Positions 20,455 to 28,897 of a stretch of 37,723 nucleotides of DNA are shown here, in pieces. The notes below the pieces were generated by a model. That model was not told the DNA's origin. It made no database searches and was given only the letters and a program-made list of their open reading frames with translations. Origin of the DNA: Clostridia bacterium (lineage in GTDB: Bacteria; Bacillota; Clostridia; Christensenellales; Aristaeellaceae); contig JAFRHH010000087.1 in assembly GCA_017433405.1 (NCBI GenBank), forward strand, positions 1 to 37,723, read 5' to 3'. Within the stretch, counting starts at the first letter, position 1. Each line of letters opens with the position of its first letter. A program made the translations under genes and the position numbers.

Positions 20455-21252
20455 GTGACGATTCTGATTACGACCCTGGTCATTGCCGCCGTGGGCCTGG
20501 TGGTCGGCTGCGGCCTGGTGGCGACGGCGAAAAAGTTCGCCGTGAAGGTCGACGAAAAGGAAAGCGCCGTGCGGGAAAAACTGCCCGGCAATAACTGCGG
20601 CGCCTGCGGCTTCGCCGGGTGCGACGCGCTGGCGGCGGCCATCGCGAAGGGGGAGGCGCCGGTGAATGCCTGCCCCGTGGGCGGAAACGCCGTGGCGAAG
20701 GAAATCGGCGCCCTGATGGGCGTCGAGGCGGGCGAGACGGAGCGGAAGGTCGCCTTCGTGGCCTGCAGGGGCAGCTGCGAGGTAACGAAGAACCAGGGCA
20801 ATTATATCGGGATCCGGGACTGCCGGGCGGCGGTCATGAGCGGGATCAGCGTGACCGACTGCAGCTACGGCTGCCTGGGATTCGGATCCTGCGCCGAGGT
20901 TTGCCCGGAGAAGGCGATCCTGATTCGGGACGGCGTGGCCATCGTCAACCGGAGCCGCTGCGTCGGCTGCGGGCTGTGTACGAAGGCCTGCCCGCGGGGG
21001 CTGATTTCCCTGATTCCCGAAAGCCGGGTGGTCCAGGTTCAGTGCTCGAACCGGGACAAGGGCCCCATGGTCCGGAAGATCTGCTCCGCGGGGTGCATCG
21101 GCTGCGCCCTGTGCGTGAAACAGTGCCCGGAAGGCGCAATGACCTTTGAAAACAATCTGGCCCGGGTGGACAGCGAAAAGTGCGTCCTCTGCGGAAAATG
21201 CGCCGAGAAATGCCCGGCGAAGGTGATTACAACGACGATCAGAGCCGTCTGA
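20455..21252 (+). CDS. rnfB: Rnf complex subunit RnfB (ferredoxin-type)
   Basis: This 265-residue Fe-S subunit accepts electrons from reduced ferredoxin. It has one N-terminal membrane anchor and the Fes domain NNCGACGFAGCDALA (Cys48, 51, 56). Several ferredoxin motifs follow: CAEVCPEKAI, CVGCGLCTKACPRG, CIGCALCVKQCPEG and CVLCGKCAEKCPAK. The start is GTG with GGGGAGGGG upstream. It is the last rnf gene. Only 46 bases separate it from the first gene of the peptide-export locus and no terminator is seen between them. Confidence 0.95.
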   Translation: MTILITTLVIAAVGLVVGCGLVATAKKFAVKVDEKESAVREKLPGNNCGACGFAGCDALAAAIAKGEAPVNACPVGGNAVAKEIGALMGVEAGETERKVAFVACRGSCEVTKNQGNYIGIRDCRAAVMSGISVTDCSYGCLGFGSCAEVCPEKAILIRDGVAIVNRSRCVGCGLCTKACPRGLISLIPESRVVQVQCSNRDKGPMVRKICSAGCIGCALCVKQCPEGAMTFENNLARVDSEKCVLCGKCAEKCPAKVITTTIRAV

Positions 21253-21298
21253 CGGGGAAACCGGGCTGCCGGTGACGAAAAGCGGAGGAAAGCGAACC

Positions 21299-21739
21299 AT
21301 GGAAGGAAAGCAGACCATGGAGGGGAAGCAGGAGATTTTTCGGAAATCCAGCCTGGAGCGGATTCAGTCTCCGGAACAGCTGGATCAGTATCTGAAGGTC
21401 ACGACGCCGATGGTGTGGATTATACTGGCGGCGATTCTGCTGCTGCTGGCGGCCGCCTTCTGGTGGAGCTCGGAGACGGAAATCGCCAGCCGGGTGGATA
21501 CGGTCGGCGTCGTCAAGGATGGCGTGCTGACCGTTGTGCTGGAGGACGAGCGAACCCGCCAGCTGGTCAAGAAGGATATGGATATTCAGATCGGCGATAT
21601 CTCGGAAACCATCGACTCCGTCCAGACGGACGCCGCCGGGGCGGTGAAGGCGCTGACCTATGTGGAGCTGCCCAACGGCACCTATAATGTTCAGATCAGC
21701 TATAAATACACCCGGCTGCTGAGCCTGTTATTCAACTGA
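21299..21739 (+). CDS. Short HlyD/NHLM-type export accessory protein
   Basis: The 146-residue protein begins like the HlyD-type secretion protein of NHLM bacteriocin systems (IFRKSSLERIQSPEQLDQYLKVTTP), with one membrane segment at about 48-66. A small beta-rich external part follows. Full family members have some 400 residues with a coiled-coil hairpin and lipoyl domains; these are absent here, and the frame shows no sign of a broken remainder downstream. GGAGGA precedes ATG 21299. A second ATG at 21317 follows an in-frame duplication of the start region (MEGKQ twice). The next gene, 16 bases on, is the C39 ABC exporter. The family link rests on the N-terminus and context. Confidence 0.7.
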   Translation: MEGKQTMEGKQEIFRKSSLERIQSPEQLDQYLKVTTPMVWIILAAILLLLAAAFWWSSETEIASRVDTVGVVKDGVLTVVLEDERTRQLVKKDMDIQIGDISETIDSVQTDAAGAVKALTYVELPNGTYNVQISYKYTRLLSLLFN

Positions 21740-21755
21740 CGAAGAGGAAAGAGGC

Positions 21756-23936
21756 ATGGGAAAGCAGAAGGTTAAGGAGCCGGTGCGGAAGGGTGTGGCC
21801 ACGGTGCCGGTGGTCCTCCAGCTGGAGGCGCAGGAATGCGGCGCCGCCAGCCTTGCCATGATTCTGGCCTATTACGGGAAGTGGGTTCCCCTCGAACAGG
21901 TGCGGTATGACTGCGGCGTATCCCGGGACGGAAGCAACGCGCGAAACCTGGTGATTACCGCCAAGCATTACGGGCTGGAGGCGAAGGGCTACCGCTGCGA
22001 GCCGGAAGTCCTCCGGGAGCAGGGCACCTTCCCCTGCATCATTCACTGGAATTTCAACCACTTTGTGGTGCTCGACGGCTTCCGGGGGAAATATGCCTAT
22101 CTGAACGATCCCGCCAGGGGGCGGGTCAGGGTCAGCCTGGAGGAGTTCGATCAGTCCTTTACCGGCGTCTGCCTGACCTTTTCCCCCGGCGAGGACTTTG
22201 TGCCGGGCGGCAAGCGCAGGAGCATTCTGGATTTCGTCCGGAAGCGGATGCGGGGAACCGAGGCCGCGGCGGTGTTCACCATCGCGGTGACGCTGCTGGG
22301 CTATCTTTTCGGGGTCATTGAGCCGGGCTTCTCCCGCTTCTTTATGGACCGGCTGCTGACGGGGGAGAACCGGGAGCTGCTGATTCCGTTTCTGATCGCC
22401 TTCGGCGTGCTCGGCGGCCTTCAGATCCTGGTGGCGGGCATTCAGGGAATCTATAACCTGCGGCTGAACGGCAAGATGGCGGCGGTGGGCAATACCACCT
22501 ATATGTGGAAGGTGCTGAAGCTGCCGGTGGCCTTCTTTTCTCAGCGGATGAGCGGCGATATCCAGAGCCGGCAGGCCAGCAATGCCTCCATCGCCGGAAT
22601 CCTGGTCAACACGCTGGCGCCGCTTTTCCTCAGCGCGATCATGATGATCTTCTATCTCGTCGTCATGGTCCGATACAGCCTGCTGCTCACCCTGATCGGC
22701 ATCATCAGCCTGATGCTGAATCTGGGGGTCAGCATGCTGATCAGCCGCAAGCAGATGGAGGTGATGCGGGTCAAGCTGAGGGATGCCGGCAACCTGACCT
22801 CCACGACGATGAGCGGCATCAGCCAGATCGAAACCCTGAAGGCCAGCGGCGCGGAAAACGGCTTCTTTCAGAAATGGAGCGGATATCACGCGGCTGTGAA
22901 CGCCCAGGAGGTCAGCTTCCAGAAGACGGAACAGCTGCTGGGGGCCATTCCCTCCCTGGTCAGCACCCTGGCGGATTCCGTCATCGTCGTGCTGGGCGTA
23001 TGGCTCGCCATGCACGGGAATTTCAGCCTGGGCATGATTTCGGCCTTCCAGATGTACCTGATGAACTTCATGTCCCCGGCGACGGAGCTGATTTCCGCCG
23101 GAACCTCCCTGCAGGAGATGCGGGGAGAGATGGAGCGCATTGAGGACGTCATGAACTATCCGGACGACGACCGCTTCGCGCCGGAGACGGGGGATCAGGC
23201 GGAAAAGGCCGGCAAGCTGAAGGGGAATATCGAGCTGAGGGATGTGACCTTCGGCTATTCCCGCCTGGCGCCCCCGCTGATCGAGCATTTCAATATGACC
23301 ATGAAGCCGGGGCAGAGCGTGGCCCTGGTGGGCATGAGCGGAAGCGGAAAAAGCACGATCAGCAAGCTGATCAGCGGCCTGTACGCCCCCTGGAGCGGGG
23401 AGATCCTCTTCGACGGCAAGCCCATTCGGGAGATTTCCCAGAGCGTTTTCACCGGATCGGTCGCCGTCGTGGATCAGGAGATCATTCTCTTTGAGGATAC
23501 GATCGCGAACAATATCAGGATGTGGGATACGACCATTCAGAATTTTGATATCATCCTGGCGGCCCGGGACGCCCAGCTCCATGAGGACATCATGAAGCGG
23601 GACGGCGGATACAACTCGGTGCTGGGGGAGAACGGACGGGATCTGTCCGGCGGTCAGCGGCAGCGGATGGAGATCGCCCGGGTGCTGGCCCAGGATCCTT
23701 CCATTATGATCATGGACGAGGCGACCAGCGCGCTGGACGCCAAAACGGAGCATAACCTGGTCCGGGCGGTTCGGGAACGGGGAATCACGACCATCGTCGT
23801 GGCCCACCGGCTGAGCACGATCCGGGACTGCGACGAGATCATCGTCCTGGATCACGGGAAGGTCGTTGAGCGCGGAACCCATGACGAGCTGTACCGCAAA
23901 GGCGGGTACTATACGGAGATGATCTCCAGTGACTGA
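21756..23936 (+). CDS. C39-peptidase ABC exporter (NHLM bacteriocin-type, first transporter)
   Basis: This 726-residue exporter joins an N-terminal C39 peptidase to a membrane domain and an ATPase. The peptidase has its catalytic residues: Cys28 in QECGAA, His102 in NHFVVLDG and Asp118 in LNDPARG. These enzymes cut peptides after double-glycine-type leaders during export. Six membrane segments follow (about 165-440). The ATPase has Walker A GMSGSGKST (526-534), the signature LSGGQRQRM and Walker B IMIMDEATSALD. The stop is followed after 49 bases by the second exporter, which probably partners it. The substrate is likely the 65-residue peptide at 26304. Confidence 0.9.
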   Translation: MGKQKVKEPVRKGVATVPVVLQLEAQECGAASLAMILAYYGKWVPLEQVRYDCGVSRDGSNARNLVITAKHYGLEAKGYRCEPEVLREQGTFPCIIHWNFNHFVVLDGFRGKYAYLNDPARGRVRVSLEEFDQSFTGVCLTFSPGEDFVPGGKRRSILDFVRKRMRGTEAAAVFTIAVTLLGYLFGVIEPGFSRFFMDRLLTGENRELLIPFLIAFGVLGGLQILVAGIQGIYNLRLNGKMAAVGNTTYMWKVLKLPVAFFSQRMSGDIQSRQASNASIAGILVNTLAPLFLSAIMMIFYLVVMVRYSLLLTLIGIISLMLNLGVSMLISRKQMEVMRVKLRDAGNLTSTTMSGISQIETLKASGAENGFFQKWSGYHAAVNAQEVSFQKTEQLLGAIPSLVSTLADSVIVVLGVWLAMHGNFSLGMISAFQMYLMNFMSPATELISAGTSLQEMRGEMERIEDVMNYPDDDRFAPETGDQAEKAGKLKGNIELRDVTFGYSRLAPPLIEHFNMTMKPGQSVALVGMSGSGKSTISKLISGLYAPWSGEILFDGKPIREISQSVFTGSVAVVDQEIILFEDTIANNIRMWDTTIQNFDIILAARDAQLHEDIMKRDGGYNSVLGENGRDLSGGQRQRMEIARVLAQDPSIMIMDEATSALDAKTEHNLVRAVRERGITTIVVAHRLSTIRDCDEIIVLDHGKVVERGTHDELYRKGGYYTEMISSD

Positions 23937-23985
23937 GCAGAAAGAAACAGGGACGGAATCATTCCCCGGGAAAGGAGGCGTGGCG

Positions 23986-26190
23986 TTGGGCTGGTTTACG
24001 GAACAGCTGGAGCAGCGGAAAAGGCAGGACCAGCAGGATTTCAGCGAGTCCATGGAGCGGATCGCCCAGGCGGTGCTGGGGGACAAATCCGTGGAAAGCA
24101 TGCTGGAGAGCGAAGCGCAGCAGGATTCCAAGGACGATATCGACGCGGTTTTGCGCTATTTTAAGCTGAAGCCCCGGCCGGTACCCGATTCCGTTCAGCA
24201 CTTTGAGGAAAAGCTGGAATACAGCATGCGCCCCTATGGGATCATGTACCGTCGGGTGGAGCTGAAGGAGAACTGGTATCGGGACGCCTACGGCCCCATG
24301 ATCGGGACGCTGAAGGAAAACGGGGCGACGGTGGCCCTTCTGCCTTATGGATACAGCGGGTATTACCGGATCGATCCGGATACGGGAAACAAGATCCGGA
24401 TCACCCGGAGAAACGTGGGAGAGCTTGATACGACGGCTGTCGTCTTCTATCGGCCCCTGCCCCAGCGACGGCTGAAGGTTCCCGATCTGCTCAGATACAT
24501 GTGGCAGTGCGTCAGCATGTCGGATCTGGCGATGCTGGTCGGAATCAGCCTGCTGGTCTCCGTCGTGGGGCTGCTTCTGCCCCGGATTCACATGCTTTTG
24601 ACCGGCATGATCTATGAAAGCGGCCGGGATGACATGCTGATCGGGACGGCGGCCTTTATTCTGGCGACGCTGATTACCTCCTCCATGATCGGAATCTCCC
24701 GCAGCCTGATGTCCAACCGGCTGCAGAACAAGACGGATCTGGGCATGGAAGCCGCGACGATGATGCGGGTGCTGAGCCTGCCCGCCCATTTCTTCCGCCA
24801 GTTCTCCTCCGGTGAGCTGAGCAGCCGTCTCTCCTCGGTCAACCAGCTGGGCATGCTGATCGTGGGGCGGATTCTGTCCGTCGGGGTTACCAGCCTGGCC
24901 TCCCTGGTTTACGTGGGCCAGATCTTTACCATCGCCCCCGCGCTGGCGCTGCCTTCCCTGGGAATCGTCGCGGCGACGACCCTGCTGACGGTGGTCACCA
25001 CCCTCCGGCAGGTGGATTACAGCCGGAGGCTCATGGAGCACGAGGCGAAGCTGGACGGCATGACCTACAGCATGATCAACGGCGTCCAGAAGATCAAGCT
25101 GGCCGGCGCGGAGAAGCGGATGTTCGCCCGCTGGGCCAGAATGTACGCGGCGGGCGCCAAGGTGGAATACAATCCGACGCTGCTGATCCGTCTGAGCTCC
25201 GCCTTCAGCCTGGCGGTGACCGTGGTGGGCAATATGGTGCTGTACTTTCTGGCGGTGCAGAGCGGTGTGACGCCGAGCCAGTATATCGGCTTTTCCGCCG
25301 CCTTTGGCGCGGTCAGCGCCGCCTTCCGGGCCCTGGCGGATATCGCCATGACCGCCTCCACCATCCAGCCGACGCTGGAAATGGCGGAGCCGATCCTCAA
25401 GGCGGAGCCGGAAACCTCCGAGGGCCGGGAGATCATCACCCATCTGAGCGGCAGCATTGAGCTGAACAACGTGTCGTTCCGGTATAATTCAACCATGCCC
25501 TACGTGGTGGATAATCTGAGCCTGAAGATCAGGGCCGGGGAGTATATCGCCCTGGTCGGCCGGACCGGCTGCGGAAAATCGACGCTGGTGCGGCTGATGC
25601 TGGGCTTTGAAACACCGGAAAAGGGCGGCGTTTTCTACGATGGAAAGGACATCAACACCCTGGATCTCCGGAGCCTGAGGCGGAAGATCGGGTCGGTGAC
25701 GCAGGACGGCACGCTGATTCCCGGGGATATCTATTCGAACATCGTGATTTCCGCGCCGGAGCTGACGCTGCAGGAAGCCTGGGAGGCGGCGGAGATGTCC
25801 GGTATCGCGGAGGATATCCGGGAGATGCCCATGGGCATGAATACCATGATCGCGGAGGGGCAGGGCGGTATCAGCGGCGGACAGAAGCAGCGGCTGATGA
25901 TCGCCCGGGCGGTGGCGCCCAAGCCCCGGATTCTGATCTTTGACGAGGCCACCAGCGCCCTGGACAACCTGACACAGAAGAAGGTCAGCGAGGCGCTGGA
26001 CGGCCTGAAGTGCACCCGGATCGTCATCGCCCACCGGCTGAGCACGATTCGCCACTGCGACCGGATTCTTCTCATGGAGGACGGCAGGATCGCCGAAAGC
26101 GGAACCTATGAGGAGCTGATCGCGAAGGGCGGAAAGTTTGCCGAGCTGGTGGAGAGACAGCGGCTGGACACGGGAGATGAATCCGACTGA
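23986..26190 (+). CDS. Second ABC exporter of the NHLM-type system
   Basis: The 734-residue protein has a long N-terminal cytosolic region without the C39 catalytic residues. Six membrane segments (from about 195) and an ATPase follow, with Walker A GRTGCGKST (525-533), ISGGQKQRLMIA and ILIFDEATSALD. This is the layout of the ATP-binding partner in NHLM bacteriocin systems. The start is TTG 23986: AAAGGAGG lies 7 bases before it and the family starts with an MGWF-type sequence. A GTG at 23929 overlapping the previous stop is the alternative. A dispersed repeat lies just after the stop (26198-26216). Confidence 0.88.
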   Translation: MGWFTEQLEQRKRQDQQDFSESMERIAQAVLGDKSVESMLESEAQQDSKDDIDAVLRYFKLKPRPVPDSVQHFEEKLEYSMRPYGIMYRRVELKENWYRDAYGPMIGTLKENGATVALLPYGYSGYYRIDPDTGNKIRITRRNVGELDTTAVVFYRPLPQRRLKVPDLLRYMWQCVSMSDLAMLVGISLLVSVVGLLLPRIHMLLTGMIYESGRDDMLIGTAAFILATLITSSMIGISRSLMSNRLQNKTDLGMEAATMMRVLSLPAHFFRQFSSGELSSRLSSVNQLGMLIVGRILSVGVTSLASLVYVGQIFTIAPALALPSLGIVAATTLLTVVTTLRQVDYSRRLMEHEAKLDGMTYSMINGVQKIKLAGAEKRMFARWARMYAAGAKVEYNPTLLIRLSSAFSLAVTVVGNMVLYFLAVQSGVTPSQYIGFSAAFGAVSAAFRALADIAMTASTIQPTLEMAEPILKAEPETSEGREIITHLSGSIELNNVSFRYNSTMPYVVDNLSLKIRAGEYIALVGRTGCGKSTLVRLMLGFETPEKGGVFYDGKDINTLDLRSLRRKIGSVTQDGTLIPGDIYSNIVISAPELTLQEAWEAAEMSGIAEDIREMPMGMNTMIAEGQGGISGGQKQRLMIARAVAPKPRILIFDEATSALDNLTQKKVSEALDGLKCTRIVIAHRLSTIRHCDRILLMEDGRIAESGTYEELIAKGGKFAELVERQRLDTGDESD

Positions 26191-26197
26191 AACGAAA

Positions 26198-26216
26198 GGG
26201 ACAGATTTTGTCCGCG
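26198..26216 (+). repeat. Dispersed repeat GACAGATTYTGTCCGYG, copy 3
   Basis: GGGACAGATTTTGTCCGCG contains GGACA-GATTT-TGTCC. It is 8 bases after the exporter stop and 88 bases before the peptide start. It matches 5229-5247 and 6916-6934. Confidence 0.6.
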
Positions 26217-26303
26217 AATCGCATAAAAGGATGTCGGAGCGCTGCCATCTTCCCGGAACAGCCGTATATACTGATGAACATTGAGGAAAGGAGGGGCTTA
26301 GCA

Positions 26304-26501
26304 GTGGAAAGGAAGCTGAAGAATCTGTTTGACTTTCAGAGATTCGAAGGCAACAGCAGCCTGCAGGCGGTCATCAACGATGTTCATGCCCGCTACGCGC
26401 TGGCGGAGCTGAGCGACGACGAGCTGACGATGGTCAACGCGGCGGGCGTTCAGGCCATGCAGTCTTCTTATAGAAACGGGATTAAGCCCGAGGACAAGTG
26501 A
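26304..26501 (+). CDS. Small leader-bearing peptide, candidate export substrate
   Basis: The 65-residue product starts at GTG 26304, with AAAGGAGGGG 7 bases upstream. The first half has LFDFQRFEGN and a likely amphipathic helix. Residues 35-48 read ELSDDELTMVNAAG, which follows the double-glycine leader pattern LSxxELxxVxGG with Ala-Gly at the cut. Cleavage after Gly48 by the C39 peptidase would release a 17-residue tail (VQAMQSSYRNGIKPEDK) with no cysteine. It lies directly after the two exporters, and its stop overlaps the sigma factor start (GTGA). It could be a bacteriocin or signal precursor. Because of the coupling to a sigma factor, a regulator of that sigma factor is the main alternative. 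Confidence 0.7.
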   Translation: MERKLKNLFDFQRFEGNSSLQAVINDVHARYALAELSDDELTMVNAAGVQAMQSSYRNGIKPEDK

Positions 26502-27022
26502 TCCTGACGGAAGAGGATCGGGAGAAGATCTATATCGCCTACAGTGGCAAGGTGATGGGATACATCATGGCCCGGGTGCGGCGCCGGGCGGAGGCCGAGG
26601 ATCTGACGGCCGATGTATTCGAAAAGGTCTATCGGAAGATCGGGGAGTATGATCGGACCAAGAGCTCTCTGAGCACCTGGATCTTTACGATTACCCGAAA
26701 CACGCTGATCGACGCCTACCGGAGGCAGCGGCCGACGGAGGAGCTCAGCGAGACGCTTTCGGACGATACTGAGATTGACGAGGAACTCCTGCAGTCGGAG
26801 ACGCTGGGGGAGCTGGCGGATGCCCTGAAGCGGCTGGATCAGGAGCTGAGGGATATTATCGTCCTCCGGTATTACGACGGGAAACCCCTGACGGAGATCG
26901 CCACGCTCATGAACCTGAGCTACGGCGCGATTAAAATCCGCCACCAGAAGGCGCTGAACGAAATCCGCCGGATGCTGAGCGGGGAGGAGCCCGGAAGGGT
27001 GGTTCCCCTGCGGGTGCTGTAA
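26498..27022 (+). CDS. ECF-type RNA polymerase sigma factor
   Basis: This 174-residue sigma factor has region 2 (YIMARVRRRAEAEDLTADVFEKVYRKI...STWIFTITRNTLIDAYRRQ), which binds core polymerase and the -10 element. Region 4 (LDQELRDIIVLRYYDGKPLTEIATLMNLSYGAIKIRHQKAL) is the -35 reader. An acidic linker of about 30 residues joins them. GTG 26498 overlaps the stop of the small peptide by 4 bases; GAGG lies 5 bases upstream. No typical anti-sigma factor gene follows. Its likely targets are in this locus, but I could not find a clear repeated ECF promoter. Confidence 0.88.
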   Translation: MILTEEDREKIYIAYSGKVMGYIMARVRRRAEAEDLTADVFEKVYRKIGEYDRTKSSLSTWIFTITRNTLIDAYRRQRPTEELSETLSDDTEIDEELLQSETLGELADALKRLDQELRDIIVLRYYDGKPLTEIATLMNLSYGAIKIRHQKALNEIRRMLSGEEPGRVVPLRVL

Positions 27023-27028
27023 AAAAAT

Positions 27029-27120
27029 ACACGGGGACGGTCCTTATGTGCTGCAAGAACACATGGGGACGGTCCTTTTGTGCTGTGAGGACAACACACG
27101 GGGACGGCTCTTCTGTTCTG
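27029..27120 (+). repeat. Three direct copies of a GGGGACGG-type repeat
   Basis: Copies at 27029-27050, 27058-27082 and 27094-27120 share the core ACACGGGGACGGTCCTT followed by a GTG- or CTG-rich end. They lie just after the sigma factor stop. An inverted copy sits at 31094-31120. Such interspersed GGGGACGG repeats are, from memory, common in Clostridia and often found near IS200-like (REP-associated) transposases; no transposase is present here. Confidence 0.75.
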
Positions 27121-27169
27121 AATTCAGAGCTGGACATGACGGGGAGACGAAGAAAGGATCATCTGAATC

Positions 27170-28897
27170 ATGGCAAATCATCCGCTCAGCATCCTTTTTC
27201 CGGATCAGGACCGGGTCGTTTATCAGACCGTTCCGGAGGAGACCTGGCACAATCTGGGGCTGGACACCCTGGTTGGCCAGGTGGCTCAGAAGCCTTCGGA
27301 GATTCCGCTGCTGCAGCGGGTGATGACCAGCCTGACAGCCGATCCCGGGGTCAGCCGCTTCCGGAGCGAGGTGTTCCAGGATCTCCTGGCGAATCCGAAG
27401 ATCCGGAATCAGCTGATGGAGCTGCTGGAAAAGGTTCGGATGTTCTACGATTACGGCGTGGTGCGGCGGCATACGGCGGACGAGGCGGGACTCTGGGATC
27501 TGATGCACCGCCTGGAGGAATACCATGATTATATCCTGACGGTGGAATCCATCCAGGCCTGTCTCACGGACCAGCAGATTACGTCGGAAGGTCTGATCCG
27601 CCTGCGGGACGAGGTCCGCGGGATCTATGAAAGCCATGCGTTTGCCGCCCTCCGGCAGGATGTGGAGGCCCTGCGGGTCTCCGCCTCGAAAGTTCAGAGC
27701 CTGACCGTGGGAATCAACCTCAATGACCGGTTCGAAGCGGTCAGCATGGGGCTGGTCTCCGTGAACGCCAGGCCTTTTACCCGTTCCGGGCTGCTGAAGC
27801 ATTTCGCGGCGGCCCTGTCGGCGAAGGACGACGTTTCCCCGGATGCGGAGTGGAACGGAAGCCTGTCGTATCAGCCGGCAGAACCGCTTTCCGCAGTCTC
27901 GGGCATGGAGCGCCTTGCGAAAACCGGCATGGTCATGCGCAATCCCCTGATCGGGCTTACGCTGGCATCCATCTCCAGGGAGGACGGATCCGCGGACGCG
28001 CCTCATCAGATGGACAGCGCCGCTTCCCAGCTGGTTTCCAGGCTGGTGCGAAAGCTGAAGGATACCCTGGGGAAGTATATGAACACGAGCGTTCGGGAGA
28101 TCGCGGATCTGATTCCGGAGCTGCTTTTCTACGTCCGCTGGGCGGAATTTATCGAATCCTGCCGGGAGCGGGGCTGGGTGTTTTCCCGGCCCCGGGTGCG
28201 GGAGGGCTCCGGGGAAGCGCCAGGCATGGAGGCCCGGGGCTTTTACAACCTGAAGCTCATGGGTTCCGTCTCTCCGGCGGAGGCGGTGACCAACGATCTG
28301 TGCTTTGACGGAGAGAAGCGCGTCTATCTGCTGACGGGGGCCAACCGGGGCGGCAAAACCACCGTGACGCAGGCGGTCGGCCAGCTGTTTCTGCTGGCGC
28401 AAAGCGGCGTCTCCGTTCCCGCGGCGTCATTTTCCTTCGATCCGGCCGATCAGGTGCTGACGCATTTCCCCGCGGACGAAGACCGAACCCTGGATCTGGG
28501 GCGGCTGGGGGAGGAGTGCCAGCGGTTCCGGGAGCTTTACGCACAGAGCACCGAGCGGAGCCTGCTGCTTTTGAACGAAACCTTTTCGACGACATCCTTC
28601 GAGGAAGGGTATTACATCGCGGTGGACGCGGTTCGCGCGATCCTCCGGCGTGGCGCCCGTACGATCTATAATACGCATATGCATAACCTGGCTCAAAATC
28701 TGGATTCCGCCATCAACACGGAGGATTCGGCCGCGAAGGCCGTATCGCTGACCGCGGAAACCCGGGAGGGCCGGTCTACCTTCCGGATACGGATCGGCCC
28801 GCCGGAAGGCAAATCCTATGCCCGCGGCATTGCGGAAAAATACGGCGTCACCTATGAGGCGCTGACGCAGGACAGCTCCACTGCGAGGAAGGAATGA
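27170..28897 (+). CDS. MutS-related P-loop ATPase
   Basis: This 575-residue protein contains the core/lever and ATPase regions of the MutS family but neither the mismatch-binding N-terminal domain nor a MutS2-type Smr nuclease. Walker A is LTGANRGGKTT (Gly390-Thr398 region). The following QLFLLAQSGVSVPA and the late YNTHMHNLA are MutS-like. The Walker B strand reads LLLLNETF: Asn469 stands where MutS has Asp, while Glu470 is kept. A start at 27170 is supported by AAAGGA some 12 bases upstream. The next gene starts 1 base after the stop. The role is unknown; mismatch repair is unlikely. Confidence 0.75.
   Translation: MANHPLSILFPDQDRVVYQTVPEETWHNLGLDTLVGQVAQKPSEIPLLQRVMTSLTADPGVSRFRSEVFQDLLANPKIRNQLMELLEKVRMFYDYGVVRRHTADEAGLWDLMHRLEEYHDYILTVESIQACLTDQQITSEGLIRLRDEVRGIYESHAFAALRQDVEALRVSASKVQSLTVGINLNDRFEAVSMGLVSVNARPFTRSGLLKHFAAALSAKDDVSPDAEWNGSLSYQPAEPLSAVSGMERLAKTGMVMRNPLIGLTLASISREDGSADAPHQMDSAASQLVSRLVRKLKDTLGKYMNTSVREIADLIPELLFYVRWAEFIESCRERGWVFSRPRVREGSGEAPGMEARGFYNLKLMGSVSPAEAVTNDLCFDGEKRVYLLTGANRGGKTTVTQAVGQLFLLAQSGVSVPAASFSFDPADQVLTHFPADEDRTLDLGRLGEECQRFRELYAQSTERSLLLLNETFSTTSFEEGYYIAVDAVRAILRRGARTIYNTHMHNLAQNLDSAINTEDSAAKAVSLTAETREGRSTFRIRIGPPEGKSYARGIAEKYGVTYEALTQDSSTARKE

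What the first reader, a model, noticed from the sequence alone, without database searches (positions are those of the whole stretch)
21299..27022. Compact peptide-export locus coupled to an ECF sigma factor
The sequence shows a mini-adaptor, a C39-peptidase ABC exporter with intact Cys/His/Asp, a second ABC exporter, a 65-residue peptide with a double-glycine-type leader, and an ECF sigma factor whose start overlaps the peptide stop. NHLM systems are known to export leader-bearing peptides. New here is the lack of any modification enzyme or immunity gene and the translational coupling of peptide and sigma factor. I infer a secreted signal or toxin whose production is tied to its own sigma factor, or a peptide that itself controls the sigma factor.
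Basis: partly seen in the sequence, partly recalled or inferred. Interest (0 to 1): 0.75.

Follow-up and report, generated by a model that had tools for sequence, protein, structure and literature searches.

The report
Sigma-peptide pair with wall-protein regulon
A bacterium carries a transcription switch paired with a tiny peptide that mimics an export tag, and sequence evidence suggests that this pair turns on very small cell-wall-binding proteins which a neighbouring type of pump could send to the cell surface.

Summary
The five genes are real. The 65-residue peptide (pep) founds a conserved unnamed family that accompanies this ECF sigma factor in 35 of 36 sigma-bearing genomes among 150 (in the last, pep and sigma are both interrupted), often with a stop/start overlap. 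The toxin/signal reading is weakened: pep keeps the exporter-recognition positions -12, -7 and -4, but its cleavage pair is Ala-Ala, not Gly-Gly, in 48 of 55 homologues.

I found an ECF-type promoter, CTGCCAnC-N13/14-CGTATcAAC, 36 nt before pep. It precedes pep in other genomes (29 of 55 against 4 of 1100 shuffles). Elsewhere in the same genome it precedes three double-glycine microproteins, two being LysM domains, and proteins with Sec-like signals. GG-LysM genes carry it in pep-bearing genomes or loci (35 of 51), rarely where no pep was seen (2 of 24). It is absent before the exporter operon.

Best reading: a sigma/pep module controls peptidoglycan-binding microproteins exported by an NHLM-type exporter. 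I infer, unproven, that pep is an anti-sigma whose uncut pseudo-leader docks on the exporter; published work suggests that losing Gly-Gly can also weaken docking. No structure prediction or wet-lab evidence.

The parts
21299..21739 (+). Mini-adaptor, 146 aa: N-terminal hydrophobic segment and a short domain; truncated NHLM HlyD-like protein
   Evidence: TIGR03794 first 56 of 421 positions only, below cutoff; homologues beside the C39 exporter in most loci
21756..23936 (+). C39-peptidase ABC exporter (NHLM ABC1, LahT-like)
   Evidence: TIGR03796 924 bits over cutoff; catalytic and ATPase motifs; C39 domain closest to 6mpz
23980..26190 (+). Partner ABC exporter without peptidase (NHLM ABC2); probable start GTG 23980, longest ORF from 23929
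   Evidence: TIGR03797 706.2 of 709.4 bits; start judged by SD and by homologues beginning MGWF
26242..26267 (+). ECF-type promoter motif CTGCCATC-N13-CGTAT, 36 nt before pep, 52 nt after the abc2 stop
   Evidence: Found by comparing pep with two LysM genes of the same genome; scans of window, own genome, other genomes
26304..26501 (+). pep: 65-aa peptide of an unnamed family
   Evidence: 37 of 150 family genomes; 12 of 396 order genomes, same-family ones included; alignment A3 of 55; no named family
26304..26396 (+). pep residues 1-31, conserved N-terminal block (LFDFQ.FE.N..LQ.VID.VHARY); proposed sigma contact (inference)
   Evidence: Conservation in A3; 13 C-terminal leader residues sufficed for LahT150 (PMC6363468 passages)
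26409..26444 (+). pep residues 36-47, pseudo-leader: L36(-12) L41(-7) V44(-4) A46(-2) A47(-1)
   Evidence: Register read from A3; hydrophobic at -12 in 54, -7 in 54, -4 in 52 of 55, at -15 in only 31 of 55
26445..26498 (+). pep residues 48-65, short hydrophilic tail
   Evidence: Alignment; substitution counts in close pairs, mixed
26498..27022 (+). ECF sigma factor, 174 aa; start overlaps the pep stop (GTGA)
   Evidence: TIGR02937, Pfam regions 2 and 4; homologues at E up to 1e-20 in 36 of 150 genomes

Best explanation
The locus is the control and export unit of a cell-envelope regulon. Step 1 (supported by sequence statistics): an ECF-type promoter precedes pep and, through the overlapping stop and start, the sigma factor. 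Step 2 (supported): the same promoter sits before unlinked genes for tiny double-glycine-leader proteins, many of them a single LysM domain, and before some proteins with Sec-like signals; that this sigma reads it is inferred from co-occurrence. Step 3 (inferred from leader and exporter families): an NHLM-type exporter trims and exports the GG microproteins, whose LysM domains then bind peptidoglycan. Step 4 (inferred, weakest): pep is a bipartite regulator. Its conserved N-terminal block binds and restrains the sigma; its pseudo-leader, with Ala-Ala at the cleavage pair, docks on the exporter's C39 domain without being cut efficiently. When the exporter is free it titrates pep and the sigma works; when cargo fills the exporter pep is displaced and shuts the sigma off, so transcription follows export capacity.
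For: Promoter: identical CTGCC-to-CGTAT spacing before pep and two unlinked LysM genes; own genome 9 sites against 4 for the reversed pattern, and with CAAC added 10 against 1 at up to two mismatches, 6 of them exact. Upstream of pep outside the window: 29 of 55 within one mismatch, 19 exact, against 4 of 1100 shuffles. Pattern totals 194 against 65 reversed in 37 pep genomes. Cargo: 35 of 51 GG-LysM genes in pep-bearing genomes or loci carry it, 2 of 24 where no pep was seen, p 9e-7 (repeated by script). Similar gene content in a second genus, G099: 4 GG-LysM, 2 other GG, 2 SH3 proteins. Pairing: sigma in 36 of 150 genomes; 34 have pep by search, G031 by reading, G045 a pep-like stretch with an in-frame TAG, as in its sigma. 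46 of 57 pep copies are followed by sigma (47 with L090), 20 with the exact A/GTGA overlap. Exporter over cutoff in 33 of 37 pep genomes against 23 of 113. Ala-Ala in 48 of 55; all 80 LysM leaders have GG. C39 leaders end in GG, GA or GS (PMC7018657, PMC10885120 passages).
Against: Against docking: the rtg paper states that the GG motif is also required for binding (PMC7018657), and the MAM paper reports that in-silico GG to AA changes made the predicted leader contact incompatible with recognition (PMC12184118). The promoter is absent before hlyD here and nearly everywhere (1 of 88 within one mismatch). Pep also occurs without an adjacent sigma, in L116, L128 and L136 just before a LysM gene, which a plain cargo reading explains as well. 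A second, divergent sigma copy in G076 and the sigma in L077 have no pep seen upstream. 26 of 55 pep upstream regions outside the window lack the motif within one mismatch, and 0 of 5 GG-LysM genes have it where pep is divergent. Four homologues have GG and three AG at the site. GG-LysM cargo also exists in genomes without pep (3 of 17, by eye from the capped list). Non-pep genomes also show a milder excess of the pattern (205 against 142). The genome has a second NHLM exporter on C86, so which one carries the microproteins is open.
Confidence: 0.35

Rival explanations
1. Pep is itself an exported cargo peptide of the same regulon (a signal, toxin or wall peptide) cut at a non-canonical Ala-Ala site; its link to sigma is only operon organisation.
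For: Keeps leader positions -12, -7, -4; copies precede LysM cargo without sigma; four homologues have GG in register; the tail is conserved in one genus (L120, L125, L126).
Against: Ala-Ala in 48 of 55 while all 80 LysM leaders examined have GG; tail 10-18 residues by eye, hydrophilic, in other pairs faster-changing than the leader; nearly every sigma genome has pep; the conserved first 31 residues were not needed for C39 recognition in LahT150.
Confidence: 0.25
2. Pep regulates sigma but does not touch the exporter: a small cytoplasmic anti-sigma or activator whose leader-like end is ancestral, left from a GG precursor.
For: Pairing with sigma and stop/start overlap; the -2/-1 glycines are lost, and literature suggests that this weakens C39 recognition; only 12 of 41 fetched pep loci lie near the exporter; G004, G089 and G125 have pep without a match over cutoff, G080 only a cut-off piece (genomes 75, 87, 83 and 92% complete).
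Against: Leader positions kept in 52-54 of 55 and in the divergent G031 pep; exporter association 33 of 37 against 23 of 113.
Confidence: 0.25
3. Orphan bacteriocin or RiPP locus with remote modification and immunity genes.
For: NHLM exporters are tied to RiPP precursors (PMC2887384 passages); the same genome has a LanM-like and radical-SAM cluster with its own NHLM exporter on C86.
Against: No modification gene among the locus genes scanned or among the regulon genes recovered in two genomes; recovered cargo is LysM and other unmodified-looking domains; the window's pep tail has no Cys or Thr, only two Ser.
Confidence: 0.07
4. The shared promoter is read by a different ECF sigma factor, and the pep-linked sigma is just one target.
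For: Co-occurrence cannot prove which sigma reads a promoter; non-pep genomes also show some excess.
Against: The motif sits before pep-sigma itself in many genomes and its excess is larger in pep genomes.
Confidence: 0.08

Closest known systems
NHLM export cassettes (TIGR03794/03796/03797), Haft 2010
   Same: Same adaptor, C39 ABC and partner ABC families; tied to precursors with GG-type leaders (PMC2887384 passages; PMC6363468 passages)
   Different: No NHLP or Nif11 precursor and no modifying enzyme found at the locus; adaptor truncated; candidate cargo here is LysM and similar domains under an ECF-type promoter; the Haft text has 0 occurrences of 'sigma' and 'lysm'
LahT of Lachnospiraceae C6A11 (C39 domain, solved as 6mpz)
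   Same: Closest solved C39 domain; leader rules -12, -7, -4 (PMC6363468 passages). That 6mpz is LahT150 is my reading of its title and the paper
   Different: LahT serves a lanthipeptide cluster with Nif11-type double-Gly leaders
MAM of Faecalibacterium, with a linked C39 exporter
   Same: GG-leader protein thought to be exported to the cell envelope (PMC12184118 passages)
   Different: Different protein; no LysM in the text and its two 'sigma' words are a supplier's name; no pseudo-leader peptide in the passages read
EbfG1-4 / PteB of Synechococcus elongatus
   Same: Small GG proteins exported by a C39 exporter for biofilm (PMC4997328 abstract and outline)
   Different: Different cargo and host; no ECF sigma or pep in what I read
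SigX-CfrX (Pseudomonas), small soluble putative anti-sigma
   Same: Small soluble protein proposed to hold an ECF sigma (PMC8999054 passage)
   Different: Linked to a porin and ion channel; no exporter or leader-like end in the passage
FlgM / ExsE export-coupled regulators (recalled, no call)
   Same: Works-like: a small inhibitor links secretion capacity to transcription
   Different: Those pass through flagellar or type III systems; pep is predicted not to be cut, and the exporter is a C39 ABC exporter

Membership tests
NHLM export cassette | C39 peptidase ABC protein over the TIGR03796 cutoff | tested here: met
   924 of 853 bits
NHLM export cassette | Partner ABC protein over the TIGR03797 cutoff | tested here: inconclusive
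   706.2 of 709.4 bits
NHLM export cassette | Full HlyD-like adaptor over the TIGR03794 cutoff | tested here: not met
   34.8 of 156.2 bits, first 56 of 421 positions
NHLP or Nif11 precursor peptide | pep matches TIGR03793/TIGR03798 or Pfam Nif11 | tested here: not met
   None of these among the families matched by 55 members at E up to 1
Double-glycine (C39) substrate | Hydrophobic residues at -12, -7, -4 | tested here: met
   Window L36, L41, V44; 54, 54 and 52 of 55 homologues (Ala counted as hydrophobic)
Double-glycine (C39) substrate | GG, GA or GS at -2/-1 | tested here: not met
   Ala-Ala in the window and 48 of 55; GG in 4, AG in 3 (register of the last seven set by hand)
ECF sigma factor | Sigma regions 2 and 4 | tested here: met
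   PF04542 and PF04545/PF08281 over cutoff
ECF sigma factor | Autoregulated promoter | tested here: inconclusive
   Motif upstream, conserved; use by this sigma not shown
Anti-sigma factor (pep) | Physical binding and inhibition of the sigma | not testable with these tools
   Structure prediction off; association only

The most novel reading that the evidence does not exclude
A new kind of export-coupled gene control: a leader mimic made cleavage-resistant by a conserved Ala-Ala pair reports the occupancy of a C39 ABC exporter to a co-translated ECF sigma factor, which in turn tunes the supply of tiny peptidoglycan-binding proteins; a FlgM-like logic on an ABC exporter.
Probability: 0.25. Interest if true: 0.9.

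Novelty: new variant of a known kind. Interest (0 to 1): 0.72.

Why it matters
It gives this exporter and sigma factor a candidate regulon and a short testable promoter, so a locus from an uncultured clade becomes a set of predictions. It suggests that C39 ABC exporters in Clostridia may serve the cell wall, not only bacteriocins: single LysM domains of about 50 residues with a GG leader. If pep is a cleavage-resistant leader mimic, these bacteria couple an ABC exporter's load to transcription, a link known to me (recalled) from flagellar and type III systems.

Tried and rejected
Rejected: pep as an NHLP or Nif11 precursor (no such match in 55 members) and as homologue of a solved protein (one hit at E 1). 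Rejected: an ECF promoter before the exporter operon. The simple sigma-70 scan of 21000-27200 found no site. Led nowhere: literature searches for LysM with GG leader, NHLM or NHLP with sigma, and exported anti-sigma (some gave the comparison papers). PEG 446 proved unrelated; the Hungate1000 bacteriocin paper has 0 occurrences of LysM, NHLM and NHLP. Tail substitution counts are mixed: relaxed in some pairs, conserved in one genus. The C84 promoter hit has no clear gene; the C5 hit looks intragenic. Downstream VanZ-like and DUF218 proteins were set aside as anti-sigma candidates: the VanZ cluster was seen in 7 of 54 loci and neither is in the window locus.

Because two papers count against docking of an Ala-Ala leader, I lowered the best explanation from 0.40 to 0.35 and the novel case from 0.30 to 0.25, and raised the regulator-without-exporter rival from 0.20 to 0.25.

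Weak points of counts: the random control includes true sites, so (shuffles; window and duplicate L130 left out) is the cleaner test. Of the 24 GG-LysM genes 'without pep', 20 lie in exporter loci where only the fetched stretch was seen and 4 in genomes searched for pep. L074 and L130 are the same contig and both count among the 57 pep copies; one tandem pep (L113) counts as followed by sigma by distance. L203, with 12 nt upstream, was left out. A3 holds 55 of 56 distinct peps; L125 was left out. rests on numbers copied. Sec-type signals were judged by eye.
Full report
Observation. The window is one contig (C67) of a 2.5 Mb genome that is 89% complete. The exporter belongs to the NHLM group; its C39 domain is closest to the solved domain 6mpz, which I take to be LahT150 (PMC6363468). 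The adaptor is truncated and the partner ABC protein falls just under its curated cutoff. The second ABC gene probably starts at 23980. Several named relatives of the exporter come from gut and rumen samples (titles); the window's own source is not known to me.

The peptide family. pep has no named family but has homologues in 37 of 150 genomes of its family and 12 of 396 of its order, eight of those 12 from its own family. Its first 47 residues are conserved: an N-terminal block, then positions that match a C39 leader at -12, -7 and -4 (54, 54 and 52 of 55 hydrophobic; -15 only 31 of 55). The next pair should be Gly-Gly. It is Ala-Ala in the window and in 48 of 55 homologues, Gly-Gly in four and Ala-Gly in three; the register of those seven was set by hand. 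The tail is short and hydrophilic. In some close pairs it changes faster than the leader, in one genus it does not.

Pairing with sigma. Of 57 pep copies in 54 loci, 46 are followed by this sigma on the same strand (47 with L090) and 20 share the exact A/GTGA overlap; L074 and L130 are one contig. Of 150 genomes, 36 have the sigma at E up to 1e-20. 34 of these are among the 37 pep genomes. In G031 I read a divergent pep with Ala-Ala just upstream of sigma. In G045 the pep-like stretch and the sigma each carry one in-frame TAG. Three pep genomes (G004, G006, G125) show no sigma; they are 75, 90 and 83% complete. Against strict pairing: G076 has a second, divergent sigma copy and L077 a related sigma with no pep seen upstream.

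Promoter and regulon. LysM search of the own genome gave only two hits, both small GG-leader LysM proteins on other contigs. Their upstream regions share with pep the blocks CTGCC..C and CGTAT at identical spacing. The genome has nine exact sites against four for the reversed pattern; with CAAC added and up to two mismatches ten against one, six exact. Sites precede pep-sigma, the two LysM genes, a third GG microprotein (C25), and proteins with Sec-like signals (by eye) and SH3 (C9), fn3 (C42) and HAD (C81) domains; C84 has no clear gene and C5 looks like chance. In genome G099, of another genus, twelve sites with none in the control precede pep, four GG-LysM genes, two other GG microproteins, two SH3 proteins, a metallo-beta-lactamase-fold protein, a small membrane protein and one place without an ORF found. 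Outside the window genome 29 of 55 pep upstream regions have the motif within one of eleven mismatches, against 4 of 1100 shuffles. GG-LysM genes have it in 35 of 51 cases in pep-bearing genomes or loci, 0 of 5 where pep is divergent, and 2 of 24 where no pep was seen, 20 of these 24 from exporter loci of which only the fetched stretch was examined. The exporter operon does not have it here, and 1 of 88 hlyD upstream regions does. Across 150 genomes the pattern exceeds its reversed control in pep genomes (194 to 65) more than in others (205 to 142). In some relatives sigma, VanZ-like, DUF218 and exporter genes follow pep in one direction and could be one operon.

Exporter link. A TIGR03796 match over cutoff is in 33 of 37 pep genomes and 23 of 113 others, p 5e-14. 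Yet only 12 of 41 loci fetched around pep have it nearby (some contigs short). The window genome has a second NHLM exporter beside LanM-like and radical-SAM genes, so the assignment of cargo to exporter is an inference. Exporter loci from genome contigs show other GG-leader cargo: CW_7 repeats, Nif11-like Cys-rich proteins, an unassigned family.

Mechanism. Supported by sequence: pairing, shared promoter, Ala-Ala pseudo-leader. Inferred: this sigma reads the promoter; the exporter carries the LysM proteins to the wall; pep restrains sigma and docks on the exporter without efficient cleavage. Reasons: C39 leaders end in GG, GA or GS (PMC7018657, PMC10885120, passages); 13 leader residues sufficed for LahT150 (PMC6363468 passages), so the conserved first 31 residues of pep should serve another partner, and sigma is the commonest one. 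Against docking: GG is stated to be needed for binding too, and in-silico GG to AA changes in MAM broke the predicted contact. Rivals: pep as cargo, pep as a regulator without exporter contact, an orphan RiPP locus, another sigma reading the promoter.

Known or new. Exporter and sigma are members of known kinds. In the searches made I saw no paper on pep, on GG-leader LysM proteins or on an ECF sigma tied to an NHLM exporter; the library holds open-licence PMC papers only, and I judged mostly from listings. MAM of Faecalibacterium and EbfG of Synechococcus show that C39 exporters are tied to envelope or biofilm proteins.

Noticed in passing
G000 C86:50000-68000 (L180): A second NHLM exporter with short adaptor beside a LanM-like protein (273.5 of 304 bits, under cutoff) and a radical SAM protein of the ACGX type; probably a RiPP cluster.
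   Followed up: partly
L043:12498-12833, L033:7736-8593, L036, L057, L064, L079: GG-leader proteins next to NHLM exporters made of CW_7 (Cpl-7) cell-wall-binding repeats; L043 confirmed by Pfam, the others by eye.
   Followed up: partly
L037:212-676(-), L042, L056, L095: GG-leader proteins of about 120 residues after the leader with a pattern like VASGSF.SNTGT.LNL.V.WSV; the one tested (L037) has no Pfam or NCBIfam match.
   Followed up: no
L033:10296-10652, L057:12485-12799, L060:14109-14372, L061:12394-12663: GG-leader peptides whose tails share a motif like SWFVTLM..L, near exporters; possible separate peptide family (by eye).
   Followed up: no
G045 C133 (L234): The pep-like ORF and the ECF sigma each carry one in-frame TAG, the one in pep where other peps have a conserved Gln; either decay or TAG read as an amino acid.
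   Followed up: no
window 27023-27121: Three degenerate 32-nt direct repeats (CACGGGGACGGTCC core) between sigma and the MutS-like gene.
   Followed up: no
window 21299-21739: The mini-adaptor also matches weakly (E 0.004, residues 35-146, below cutoff) the MAG1140 family of NCBIfam.
   Followed up: no
L113:5712-8262, L124, L117, L033: VanZ-like and multi-TM DUF218 proteins downstream of pep-sigma in several relatives, not in the window locus.
   Followed up: partly
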